Below, piece by piece: positions 8,102 to 11,356 of a stretch of 32,678 nt of DNA. Below the pieces are notes generated by a model that made no database searches, had not been told where the DNA came from, and saw only the letters and a program-made list of their open reading frames with translations. Numbering within the stretch: position 1 is the first letter of the stretch; each line of letters opens with the position of its first letter. Source of the stretch: Candidatus Solibacter sp. (GTDB lineage: Bacteria > Acidobacteriota > Terriglobia > Bryobacterales > Bryobacteraceae); contig JANYJN010000009.1 in the NCBI GenBank assembly GCA_025358475.1, forward strand, positions 1 to 32,678, read 5' to 3'. The translations under genes were made by a program, and so were the position numbers.

Positions 8102-9784
8102 CTAAAAAAGCAGGATTCTTCGCAGTTCGCCTTCTGGATCGTCCACCATCCGGCAGCGATTGTCGAACACCATCGTTTGACAGCGTGTTGCATCGCTGGG
8201 AGTCCAGGTCAACCCGGGCTGGCTGGGATTGCCGGTGCGGGCGAAGTTCGCCCAGGCCGTCGCCATTTTCTTGGCCAGAGCCTGTGCCTCCGGCGTGTTG
8301 CCAGTGCCCTGTTCGCAGCGCTTGGTGTTGTCGGAGCAAAAAGCGAGCTCGGCCGTGTGCCAGGCTCCAGCATCCTCCAGCATCGGCGATTGCCAGGTGA
8401 AGTAATACTGGTAAACCGGCCCTCCCTGCTGATCGTGTTTCAGCTTGACCATGCGCTGGACGTTATTGCGCGAGCTGATGCCATTCACACCATAAGACAG
8501 GAGTCGAATACTCCTCTCCGGGTGCGCCTTTTTCATGGCGGCGATGAAGGCTGCCGCCTTGCTCTCTCCCATGCTCCGGGCGAGCGTGGCATGCCACTCC
8601 GCCTCGGTGGGCCGGGAAGACATGCGATTTCCTTCTTCGCTCACGTTGCCAATCAGCACGGGCACATTCTTGGAAATCTCCGGGGCGACATCATAGAAGG
8701 AACGCACCATGACGACACGGCCGTCGACGGTGGGCGAGAACCCGGCGCGCGGCACAGAGTTTGGCGCTGAGCCCGGACCCGTCGTGGCCGGCGCCGGCGG
8801 GTTGATTTTCGCAACGGCGGCATTGCCGGCAGCGTTTAGTCTGGCCCAATCCATCTTCTGCAGCGAGGCGAGGTCGTTGGGCTGCAGTCCCAGTTCCTTC
8901 ATGATCTGCCTGGCGAGTTCTCTGGACAAGTCAGCGCCGGGGAAATTGCCGCCTCCGCCCGATTGCACCGACGCGCGATGGAACAAACCGGCGGCCGCCG
9001 GCATGCCCATCAGACACGTCACCTTCGAGCCGCCGCCGGACTGGCCGTAGATCATGACCCTGTCCGGATCGCCGCCGAAGTTCGCAATGTTCTCGCGGAC
9101 CCATTTCAGCGAGGTTACCAGGTCCGTCATGCCTATGTTCACCGAATCGGAATATGCCGGCCCGCCGATCTCGGATACATCGAAGAATCCAAGGATGTTG
9201 AGGCGGTGATTGACCGTCACCACGACCACATCGTGATAGCGGGCCATCTGCGCGCCTTCCTGCGAGGGCAGCTCGTAGGACGATCCGAAGGTAAAACCGC
9301 CCCCATGGTAATAGACCATCACGGCCTTTTTGCCGGTCAGCGAGGACGTCCAGACATTCAGCTTGAGCATGTCCTCGCTCATGTAGCCGTCGTCCCAATC
9401 CTGCAGGAAGGATTGCTCGATCGCGGTATAGTCGTGCAGGCGCTGCGGACAGTTGGGCCCATAAATGAGGGCGGGGTACTCGCCATCCCAGGATTTGGGC
9501 GGTTGGGCGGGGAGCCATCGATTTTCGCCGCCGGTGTTTTGCCCGTACGGTATTCCTTTAAATGTGAGTACGCCGGCATCGACATACCCGCGCACTCTGC
9601 CGTATTGCGTTTTCGCGACCGCGGATCTAGGCGTAGAGCAGCCACCCGGAGCCTGGTGCGCAGCGGTCTTGGTGCTGTCCGACGCCTCCGCGGTCTGGTT
9701 CAACGCGGCTCCCAACCCTGCCGCCGTGGGCAGGAGAAGCGCCTGCCGGCGGTTCATTATCGTGCGATTCCTGGTACTAGACAT
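8102..9784 (-). CDS. Type-B carboxylesterase, exported
   Basis: The 560-residue alpha/beta hydrolase would cleave acyl or feruloyl/acetyl esters on hemicellulose. ATG 9784 is preceded by AGGAGAGGAA. An internal start (MNRRQALLLPTAAG) has no ribosome-binding site but marks a Tat-like leader. Family landmarks are VRGYVDAGVLTFKGIPYG near the N-terminus, the oxyanion loop YYHGGGF, the nucleophile S249 in YGQSGGG, the acid E384 in NVSEEGN, and H476 in AWHTAEL. The length is usual for the family. It is convergent with the GH51 gene. Its promoter region borders the palindrome next to the IS110 element, so its expression may have been altered by the insertion. Substrate is inferred from the neighbourhood only. 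Confidence 0.92.
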   Translation of the reverse strand: MSSTRNRTIMNRRQALLLPTAAGLGAALNQTAEASDSTKTAAHQAPGGCSTPRSAVAKTQYGRVRGYVDAGVLTFKGIPYGQNTGGENRWLPAQPPKSWDGEYPALIYGPNCPQRLHDYTAIEQSFLQDWDDGYMSEDMLKLNVWTSSLTGKKAVMVYYHGGGFTFGSSYELPSQEGAQMARYHDVVVVTVNHRLNILGFFDVSEIGGPAYSDSVNIGMTDLVTSLKWVRENIANFGGDPDRVMIYGQSGGGSKVTCLMGMPAAAGLFHRASVQSGGGGNFPGADLSRELARQIMKELGLQPNDLASLQKMDWARLNAAGNAAVAKINPPAPATTGPGSAPNSVPRAGFSPTVDGRVVMVRSFYDVAPEISKNVPVLIGNVSEEGNRMSSRPTEAEWHATLARSMGESKAAAFIAAMKKAHPERSIRLLSYGVNGISSRNNVQRMVKLKHDQQGGPVYQYYFTWQSPMLEDAGAWHTAELAFCSDNTKRCEQGTGNTPEAQALAKKMATAWANFARTGNPSQPGLTWTPSDATRCQTMVFDNRCRMVDDPEGELRRILLF

Positions 9785-9824
9785 TTCCTCTCCTATGATG
9801 TTTTGTCAACTACAACCTGGTTAT

Positions 9825-9840
9825 CGTCTTTCGCAAGACG
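9825..9840. repeat. Perfect 6-bp hairpin beside the esterase promoter region
   Basis: CGTCTT, loop TCGC, AAGACG is a perfect stem-loop about 40 bases upstream of the esterase start. It may be the outer edge of the IS110-associated structure or an operator. Confidence 0.4.
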
Positions 9841-9853
9841 AAGAAACTGCGCT

Positions 9854-10020
9854 GTATCTGGTTCCCGGCGGAGTCGTCCGTCGTGATTCATCCTCGTGCA
9901 GAACGGCGCACAGGAGGCAAGGGCGCGGCGGTGTGTGCCGCGGCGTAGCGAACCCTTGCCGCCGAGCACCGTTCTGCTACCGCGCATCCGACGACGGACG
10001 GCGCAGCGGGAACCAGATGC
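9854..10020. repeat. Large imperfect palindrome 3' of the IS110 transposase
   Basis: Reading inward from both ends gives matching blocks: ATCTGGTTCCCG, then GTCCGTCGT, GCAGAACGG and GGCAAGGG on the left arm, with reverse complements in the same order on the right arm. Arms are about 65-70 bases and the centre holds GCGGC/GCCGC. Just outside, CGGGAACCAG (10007-10016) also pairs with CTGGATTCCCG (10021-10031), giving an alternative hairpin. It fills most of the 268-base gap between the transposase stop and the esterase start. It could be part of the insertion sequence end (a structured RNA) or a palindromic target into which the element jumped. Confidence 0.7.
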
Positions 10021-10052
10021 CTGGATTCCCGGTGGTGGGTTCCCGAGTGCCC

Positions 10053-11075
10053 TCATGAGGCCTCCGCCAATACGAAGTTCGGAAAGTATTCGAATACCCA
10101 CTTGTTCCTTAACGTCCGGTAGATGATGCCCAAGAACTTCCGAGCCAGCGCAATGATCGCCTTGCCGGCTCCCCGTCGCGCCTTTACATGCTCGTAGAAC
10201 CGCTTCAAGTAGGGACTGTAGTTGGCTGCAATCAACGCCGATTGCACCAACGCCGTCCGCCCCAATTTGGTCTCTCGCTTGTGAATGCGTCCGCTTCTCT
10301 CGGTCTCGTTGGAATTCGAGACGCGCGGCACTATGCCGAAGTAGCTGGCCAGCCGGCCCTCGTCGGCGAAGTCATTCACATCTCCAATCACGCTCAGCAG
10401 GATCGCGCTCGTGATCTTGCCGATTCCCTTGATGCTCGACAGACCCTTGTGGCCCTCTAACTTCGAACCTTCCGCGCTAATCGTCTTCTCCAACTCGGCG
10501 ATGCTCTTGTTCAGGCTACGGATCTGCTCGACGATCACCCGCAGCTCGATCCGCACCATGGCATCGAAGGGCACCTCCAATACTTCGCCCAGCTTCTTCT
10601 CGCTCGACAGGGCTTCCTTGGGCAGGTTCAGCCCGCGTGCGCTCAGAATATTGTTCACCTTATTCTTCAGCGCCGTGCGCTGCTTCACCAGCGTGTCGCG
10701 CGTCTGCGTGAGCGAGGCCAGTTGCGCCAGATCTTTATCCTTCATGCGTACCTCTGGCAACAATCCCTTGGACAGATACAGCGCCAGCAGCCGCGCGTCG
10801 TTCGGATCGGTCTTCTTCACCGACCGGCTGATCACCCGGAATTGATTGGTGTCCACCACCACCACACGCGCCACCTGTGGCGCCACCGCGTCGTGAAATA
10901 GCCGCGTGTTGCCGGTGATTTCCACCGCCACTTCGTCGCTGGGACGCAGTTTCTTGACGAATCGCCCCAGATCCTCCAGCTCCCATTCGGTTACGTACGT
11001 CCGCTCGTTCTCCAGCCGGATGCAGCAGGTGAATCGATTGCGGTGTAAGTCGATGCCGATGTATCGTTTTTCCAT
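10053..11075 (-). CDS. IS110-family transposase (DEDD recombinase)
   Basis: The 340-residue product catalyses cut-and-paste-like recombination of its own element. ATG 11075 follows AGGAGAG. The N-terminal RuvC-like domain carries D9 (YIGIDLHRN), E52 (AVEITGN) and D90/D93 (KTDPNDARLLA), the DEDD set. A coiled-coil middle (about residues 110-210) leads to the C-terminal transposase_20 domain with a helix-hairpin-helix-like SIKGIGKITSAILLSVIGD and the ASYFGIVPRVSNSNETERSGRI block. Length is typical and the frame is intact, so the element may be active. IS110 elements use a bridge RNA from a non-coding end to choose targets. Both flanks here are structured. I could not define the element ends because the family lacks clear terminal repeats. 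Confidence 0.95.
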   Translation of the reverse strand: MEKRYIGIDLHRNRFTCCIRLENERTYVTEWELEDLGRFVKKLRPSDEVAVEITGNTRLFHDAVAPQVARVVVVDTNQFRVISRSVKKTDPNDARLLALYLSKGLLPEVRMKDKDLAQLASLTQTRDTLVKQRTALKNKVNNILSARGLNLPKEALSSEKKLGEVLEVPFDAMVRIELRVIVEQIRSLNKSIAELEKTISAEGSKLEGHKGLSSIKGIGKITSAILLSVIGDVNDFADEGRLASYFGIVPRVSNSNETERSGRIHKRETKLGRTALVQSALIAANYSPYLKRFYEHVKARRGAGKAIIALARKFLGIIYRTLRNKWVFEYFPNFVLAEAS

Positions 11076-11300
11076 TGCTCTCTCCTGGTTGTGTGAACTC
11101 CCAGCTGGAGTAGACTAACTTTGCGGCGGTCACTACACTCCTATGCGAGGTCGCCAGGCGCCTCATGATGACGTTCAATCCACAGGTCTGACCAATTCCT
11201 TTACGGGGTCATTGCCCCAATAAACCGATCCAGCCTGTGACATGCCTACTCCGGAAGTCCCTTCCCGGAGCCTACCGCCGATCGTCGGTCGATAAGACAT
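11076..11300 (-). ncRNA. Candidate bridge-RNA region 5' of the IS110 transposase
   Basis: Upstream of the transposase on its own strand lie about 225 non-coding bases with three successive hairpins. GGGG/CCCC has a 6-base loop (11205-11218), CTCCGGAAG/CTTCCCGGAG has one bulge (11249-11270), and CCGA/TCGG has a 3-base loop (11278-11288). In the IS110 subgroup the bridge RNA is known to come from this side. No donor- or target-loop match to element ends could be checked, so this is a positional and structural inference. Confidence 0.3.
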
Positions 11301-11310
11301 TCATCTCATC

Positions 11311-11356
11311 TCCTTTCAACGCTTGATACTGCCTCCTTTCAACGCTTGATACTGCC
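11311..11356. repeat. Two tandem copies of a 23-bp unit
   Basis: A 23-base unit containing CAACGCTTGATACTGCC occurs twice head to tail (11311-11333, 11334-11356) with no mismatch, between the IS110 5' flank and the xylanase stop. On the minus strand each copy ends in GAAAGGA, and the copy nearer the transposase is followed by a ten-codon frame (MNVLSTDDRR). Confidence 0.85.

What the first reader, a model, noticed from the sequence alone, without database searches (positions are those of the whole stretch)
9785..11310. IS110 element with strongly structured flanks on both sides: candidate bridge RNA
IS110 transposases use a non-coding bridge RNA made from one element end. Here the 5' flank holds three tandem hairpins and the 3' flank a palindrome of about 165 bp. 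The transposase is intact, so the element may be active and its RNA undescribed.
Basis: partly seen in the sequence, partly recalled or inferred. Interest (0 to 1): 0.6.

Follow-up and report, generated by a model that had tools for sequence, protein, structure and literature searches.

The report
IS110 bridge RNA targeting gene starts
A bacterial jumping gene carries a guide RNA whose loops match the ribosome-binding site and the start codon of its host's genes, so it lands just in front of genes and puts a ribosome-binding site back; the mechanism is known, but this wiring mixes features of two known groups.

Summary
In detail: an intact 340-aa IS110-family transposase (window 10053-11075, minus strand), three hairpins upstream of it, and a ~163-bp palindrome downstream. 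Relatives from over 30 contigs place the element at 9790-11309. The upstream hairpins (11105-11297) are a conserved bridge RNA: 95% of pairs kept in 34 sequences, 23 pairs with double changes. Nearly every copy lies in a Shine-Dalgarno (SD) sequence 4-9 nt before a start codon, in the same direction as that gene. The target-loop guide covaries with the left flank (120/132 matches, 87 expected, p<=5e-5). The other side of the loop matches the reverse complement of the right flank, start codon included (p=1e-4). The donor loop repeats the element's own end, AUAGGAG. The palindrome is not guide RNA: it is a nested interspersed repeat. The natural target is the translation start, as known for IS900. 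And the element mixes an IS110-type upstream RNA with IS1111-type guide order and subterminal inverted repeats. The window copy looks partly decayed: it has a guide deletion and a Gly268Glu change.

The parts
9790..11309 (-). Whole element, 1520 bp, with the cut placed after GGAG on both sides (9792-11311 if the cut is GG|AG; the shared AG makes the two indistinguishable)
   Evidence: Ends where alignments with L006, L008, L035, L038, L039, L041 and others stop
10053..11075 (-). IS110-family DEDD transposase, 340 aa; D9, E52, D90, D93 and S255 present; Gly to Glu at 268
11105..11297 (-). Bridge RNA (seekRNA) gene upstream of tnp
   Evidence: Covariance model hit 191.8 bits; covariation on A1 and A2
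11248..11271 (-). First hairpin of the bridge RNA
   Evidence: Helix 2; position
11181..11239 (-). Target-binding hairpin/loop
   Evidence: Helices 3 and 4; position
11192..11204 (-). 3'-side target guide GUAAAGGA(--)AUUGG, same sense as the left target half AAAGGAG; has lost 2 nt relative to relatives (GUAAAGGAGAUUGG)
   Evidence: Covaries with left flanks
11219..11230 (-). 5' side of the target loop (GAUCGGUUUAUU here); in relatives it matches the reverse complement of the right flank with the start codon (CAU/CAC...)
   Evidence: in the window copy itself the match is weak
11132..11172 (-). Donor-binding hairpin/loop
   Evidence: Helices 5 and 6
11136..11146 (-). Donor guide GCAUAGGAGUG, same sense as the element's right end CATCATAGGAG
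   Evidence: AUGGGAG in the RNA where the end is ATGGGAG (L094, L098)
9790..9813 (-). Right end GTAGTTGACAAAACATCATAGGAG: outward -35-like TTGACA and a new SD (AUAGGAG) for the downstream gene
   Evidence: Sequence
11310..11316 (-). Left target half-site AAAGGAG (captured Shine-Dalgarno), outside the element
9782..9789 (-). Right target half: spacer AGGAA and start codon ATG of the carboxylesterase gene
11310..11355 (-). Tandem pair of a 23-bp unit, each ending exactly in GAAAGGAG at the cut
9856..10018 (.). Nested palindrome inside the element between tnp and its right end; not part of the bridge RNA
8102..9784 (-). Target gene: carboxylesterase, 560 aa
   Evidence: orthologues L115-L117 in the same genus have an SD and no element there

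Best explanation
The region 9790-11309 is an IS110-family element. Its upstream end encodes a bridge RNA with one target loop and one donor loop. [quoted passage not shown] The donor loop pairs with the element's own right end (..AUAGGAG) and probably its left end. The transposase joins a circular donor to this target, so copies land between SD and ATG in one orientation. The AGGAG at the element's right end then gives the gene a new SD. Shown here by comparison: ends, RNA structure, both guide matches and their covariation, donor match, and insertion in front of genes. Inferred: transcription of the RNA, circle formation, strand exchange, and preserved expression of the target gene.
For: Ends and flanks from independent insertions. 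Guide against left flank at positions -7..-5: 120/132 matches against 87.4 expected over 44 sites, and 93/105 against 68.3 with one site per element, both p<=5e-5. Of 19 elements whose guide is not AAA there, 14 match fully, including non-SD variants such as CACGAAG/CACGAAG. Position -8 shows no signal. Guide 5' side against the reverse complement of the right flank p=1e-4, while two wrong-strand or wrong-side controls give p=0.33 and 0.89. Both targets with a GTG start have CAC in the guide, others mostly CAU/UAU. Donor AUAGGAG to AUGGGAG changes on both sides. Structure covariation. 25 of 30 cuts lie 3-18 nt before an ORF of at least 60 codons, against 136 of 376 AGGAG sites in the same loci. 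Conserved U-G pairs fit the tnp-sense strand.
Against: No expression or activity data. The window copy itself has a 2-nt deletion in one guide and a poor match of the other to its right flank, so the case rests on relatives. The right-flank signal is weaker than the left and needs a variable offset. Three relatives with mutated right ends (L042, L043, L044) do not match their donor guide fully. No exact empty site with both flanks was found.
Confidence: 0.9

Rival explanations
1. The bridge RNA lies in the 3' flank: the palindrome is the guide RNA, as in IS1111 elements where the RNA is downstream of tnp.
For: Strongest fold in the region (z -4.75); inside the element in its close relatives.
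Against: Missing or replaced in most lineages of the family (L042-L045, L048-L050, L060-L064). Recurs alone and after unrelated IS110-like transposase ORFs. The covarying guides are in the upstream RNA.
Confidence: 0.03
2. The element simply prefers SD-like DNA through its protein, and the AAGGAG in the upstream RNA is a coincidence or a ribosome-binding site of a leader.
For: The core GGAG is nearly constant in guides and targets, so covariation can hardly be seen at those positions.
Against: Positions -7..-5 follow the guide of each element, also where both depart from the SD (CACGAAG, ACAG, TCAGGAG, AGAGGAG). The right side follows too.
Confidence: 0.04
3. An ordinary IS110-group element whose guides have the IS621 order, misread here.
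For: RNA is upstream of tnp, and the transposase lies outside the IS1111 cluster.
Against: The top-strand match is 5' of the bottom-strand match, the reverse of IS621 and ISEc21 (PMC11208160, PMC11187229), and this holds whichever strand is transcribed. Wrong-side and wrong-strand controls are negative.
Confidence: 0.1

Closest known systems
IS621 / IS110-group bridge RNA (Durrant 2024, PMC11208160)
   Same: DEDD transposase, RNA encoded upstream of tnp, target loop followed by donor loop, no target duplication.
   Different: Guide order reversed: here the 5' side pairs with the top strand (right half) and the 3' side with the bottom strand (left half). Target is SD plus start codon.
ISEc11 and IS1111-group seekRNA (Siddiquee 2024, PMC11187229)
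   Same: Top-strand match 5' of bottom-strand match; 9-10 bp subterminal inverted repeats in sister lineages, fitting the 7-bp left / 3-bp right rule if the cut is GG|AG.
   Different: RNA upstream, not downstream, of tnp; transposase not in the IS1111 cluster.
IS900 of Mycobacterium avium subsp. paratuberculosis (IS110 family)
   Same: Natural target CATGNNNNNNTCTCCTT = start codon plus SD (PMC8141618; Doran 1997, cited there).
   Different: IS900 tnp runs against the target gene (from memory and the hed description; not tested), here it runs with it. A guide RNA for IS900 was not found in the library.
ISMtsp17
   Same: IS1111-type element with an upstream noncoding region, reported as an exception in PMC11187229.
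   Different: Not compared by sequence.

Membership tests
IS110 family (DEDD RNA-guided transposases) | DEDD_Tnp_IS110 plus Transposase_20 domains, DEDD residues and catalytic Ser | tested here: met
IS110 family (DEDD RNA-guided transposases) | Noncoding RNA with target and donor loops matching target and ends | tested here: met
   expression not testable
IS110 group | RNA in a long LE upstream of tnp | tested here: met
   11105-11297 upstream of tnp in the window; upstream in the relatives too
IS110 group | Bottom-strand guide 5' of top-strand guide | tested here: not met
   order is reversed
IS110 group | No or only 2-3 bp subterminal inverted repeats | tested here: inconclusive
   4-6 bp in the window clade, 9-10 bp in 8 sister elements
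IS1111 group | Subterminal inverted repeats with 7/3 bp extensions | tested here: inconclusive
   Fits in L060, L061, L088, L094, L098, L104, L106, L107 (with GG|AG cut); not clear in the window copy
IS1111 group | RNA downstream of tnp | tested here: not met
IS1111 group | Top-strand guide 5' of bottom-strand guide | tested here: met
IS1111 group | Transposase within the IS1111 cluster | tested here: not met
   separated by a branch with 100/100 support from ISEc11, IS5708, IS1492, ISShdy1
IS900-like translation-start targeting | Target consists of SD, spacer and start codon | tested here: met
IS900-like translation-start targeting | Homology of the RNA with that of IS900 | not tested
   No IS900 sequence was reached with these tools

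The most novel reading that the evidence does not exclude
A third architecture of bridge-RNA elements, spread over Acidobacteriota, Planctomycetota and an alphaproteobacterial plasmid: upstream RNA as in IS110, reversed guide order and subterminal repeats as in IS1111, and a natural guide that spells the translation start (SD plus start codon), so that very many gene starts are possible targets and the element rebuilds the SD. The SD-like DNA of its own guide and of tnp also acts as a target half-site, giving self-inflicted deletions.
Probability: 0.4. Interest if true: 0.65.

Novelty: new variant of a known kind. Interest (0 to 1): 0.5.

Why it matters
It shows by natural covariation how a bridge RNA can address a functional signal rather than a unique sequence: an SD half-site plus a start-codon half-site. 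That could explain in RNA terms the long-known preference of IS900 for translation initiation signals, and it gives a testable link between the IS110 and IS1111 groups. If active, such recombinases would be natural tools for placing DNA directly before genes while keeping a ribosome-binding site.

Tried and rejected
Rfam at gathering threshold gave nothing; at E<=1 only weak sub-threshold matches, mostly to microRNA models on the palindrome. Rigid core-anchored alignment of the 5' guide to the right flank gave only p 0.03-0.9 depending on offset; an offset-free test with controls was used instead. A short leader ORF starting at the captured SD (ATGAATG...) was considered and dropped because its frame and length are not conserved (sequences). 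Exact empty site: congeners have the orthologous carboxylesterase with its SD and no element, but a different upstream gene, so the left flank could not be compared. Papers: no report of a bridge RNA for IS900 or of an SD-targeting bridge RNA in the open library, which leaves out most subscription journals.

Full report
WHAT IS THERE. The window lies in a draft genome of 818 contigs. Named close relatives found by protein search are MAGs of Acidobacteria, Terriglobia and Bryobacteraceae. On the minus strand 10053-11075 encodes a 340-aa transposase with both IS110 Pfam domains; NCBIfam calls it an IS110 family RNA-guided transposase. D9, E52, D90 and D93 are present, and S255 aligns with the serine of the YESG motif of IS621, which I take for its catalytic serine (S241 from memory). 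The nearest solved structures by sequence are IS621 and ISCro4. Below, all ends are given in the direction of tnp, i.e. on the window minus strand.

ENDS. DNA and protein searches in relatives brought in relatives on more than 30 contigs in different places. Alignment stops at the same points in most of them. On the left the element mostly begins right after ...AAAGGAG| with ATGAGATG or ATGGYATG. On the right it ends ...CATCATAGGAG|. In the window this is 11309 to 9790. There is no duplication of the target; AGGAG is shared by flank and right end, so the cut may lie anywhere in that stretch.

TARGET. Nearly every copy interrupts a Shine-Dalgarno sequence. Left flanks end in AAAGGAG, TAAGGAG, AGAGGAG, TCAGGAG and the like, and right flanks start 4-9 nt before ATG or GTG in most copies. 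In 25 of 30 copies an ORF of at least 60 codons starts 3-18 nt after the cut, in the direction of tnp; other AGGAG sites in the same loci do so in 136 of 376 cases. In the window the gene is a carboxylesterase. In three genomes of the same genus its orthologue starts ..GAGAGGAGTCAAGATGTC.. with no element. The gene upstream differs there, so this is support and not an exact empty site.

THE RNA. The LE of 18 relatives aligns, and the consensus fold has a first hairpin, a target-loop hairpin and a donor-loop hairpin within an outer helix. On that alignment 97% of cells are paired, against 30-45% when the partner is slid 1-3 bases; 14 pairs change on both sides (7.4 in shuffles). On 34 sequences fitted to the model 23 pairs do, with covariation score 0.42 against 0.19 (that alignment leans to the structure). 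The model finds the RNA in elements not used to build it, as far as a 50%-identical transposase on a Tardibacter plasmid. U-G pairs kept in nearly all sequences (columns 98/116 and 158/181) fit the tnp-sense strand and would be A-C on the other.

GUIDES. The 3' side of the target loop reads GU(AAA)GGAGAUU in most copies. At positions -7..-5 it follows the left flank of each insertion: 120 of 132 matches against 87.4 for shuffled guides over 44 sites, and 93 of 105 against 68.3 with one site per element (both p<=5e-5). Position -8 shows no signal. Of 19 elements whose guide is not AAA there, 14 match fully, including targets that are hardly SD-like: CACGAAG with CACGAAG (L099), CAC with CACAAAG (L088), ACAG with ACAGAAG (L089). 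The 5' side of the loop matches the reverse complement of the right flank (summed longest match 115 against 95.3, p=1e-4), while the same-sense right flank (p=0.33) and the left flank (p=0.89) do not. Examples: L039 CAUUGAU against CATTGATAC; L107 CAUUUCUU against CATTTTCTT. The two targets with a GTG start have CAC in the guide where others mostly have CAU or UAU. So the RNA reads the SD with one side and spacer plus start codon with the other. The donor loop carries AUAGGAG, the right end of the element; in L094 and L098 both are AUGGGAG.

A MOSAIC. In IS621 and ISEc21 the bottom-strand guide is 5' and the top-strand guide 3'; in IS1111 elements the order is reversed (PMC11208160, PMC11187229). 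Here it is reversed, and this does not depend on which strand is transcribed. Eight sister elements have perfect 9-10 bp subterminal inverted repeats 4-5 bp from each cut; with the cut at GG|AG this is the 7-bp/3-bp rule given for IS1111. Yet the RNA is upstream of tnp as in IS110, and the transposase lies outside the IS1111 cluster (ISEc11, IS5708, IS1492, ISShdy1) with full support. The window clade keeps only 4-6 bp of the repeats. Exceptions to the two-group scheme were already noted (ISMtsp17), so I call this a variant, not a new kind.

THE PALINDROME. It is inside the element but not part of the guide RNA. It is present in the close relatives and absent or replaced in most other lineages. 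An inner ~80-bp palindrome (around 9898-9977) recurs alone, or nested in other outer palindromes (L003, L020, L021, L026), and in L002 (own genome), L012, L016 and L029 it follows ORFs that read like other IS110-family transposases (recognised by eye from motifs, no family search done). I take it for an interspersed palindromic repeat; its role is unknown.

STATE OF THE WINDOW COPY. Single copy in the draft genome. Its 3' guide has lost two bases (AAAGGA--AUUGG), its 5' guide matches its right flank poorly, and Gly268, kept in all 25 aligned relatives, is Glu. It may be on the way to decay. The left flank is a tandem pair of 23 bp, each ending exactly at GAAAGGAG; unexplained.

DERIVATIVES. 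L011 keeps both ends and the RNA but has lost most of tnp. In L013 and L091 the element is cut off exactly at the guide AAGGA(G) and joined to spacer plus start codon of a gene; in L087 it is cut off at the SD of tnp and joined to a gene start likewise. The natural reading, inferred, is that the SD-like DNA inside the element is used as a target half-site.

WHAT IS KNOWN. IS900 has the target CATGNNNNNNTCTCCTT, start codon plus SD (PMC8141618), and a 1997 paper cited there says it targets translation initiation signals. So targeting of gene starts by an IS110-family element is not new. What this adds is the RNA that reads it, shown by covariation, and the mixed architecture. I found no paper on a bridge RNA of IS900 in the open library.

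Noticed in passing
window 9898-9977; L002, L003, L012, L014, L016, L018, L020, L021, L026, L029: An ~80-bp palindrome (AGAACGGT.CTCGC.GTCAAGGGTTCGCTTCGCCGCGCC...) recurs across the family, nested in at least two different outer palindromes, and in L002, L012, L016 and L029 follows other IS110-like transposase ORFs: a palindrome that sits in palindromes.
   Followed up: partly
window 11310-11355: Tandem 23-bp repeat GCAGTATCAAGCGTTGAAAGGAG x2, each copy ending exactly at the insertion core; possibly a trace of an earlier insertion or excision.
   Followed up: no
L013, L091, L087, L101: Truncated elements whose deletion junction lies exactly at the guide's AAGGA(G) (L013, L091, L101) or at the SD of tnp (L087); in L013, L091 and L087 a gene start follows. 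Looks like self-targeting.
   Followed up: partly
L090 (G809:C4): Another IS110-family transposase ORF with short inverted ends has inserted inside the bridge RNA gene, just after the target loop.
   Followed up: no
G073 (L041, L077, L079, L081, L082): Five copies in one genome, four at contig ends; 4 of 5 left flanks match the guide GAAGGAG, suggesting recent activity.
   Followed up: partly
window 9790-9813: Right end carries TTGACA about 18 nt before a GATGAA in the LE when the ends are joined: a possible junction promoter; in the inserted state it points into the target gene.
   Followed up: no
L041 right flank: Right flank ATGGTATGAA repeats the first 10 nt of the element's own left end, as if a second copy or a circle junction had been there.
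   Followed up: no
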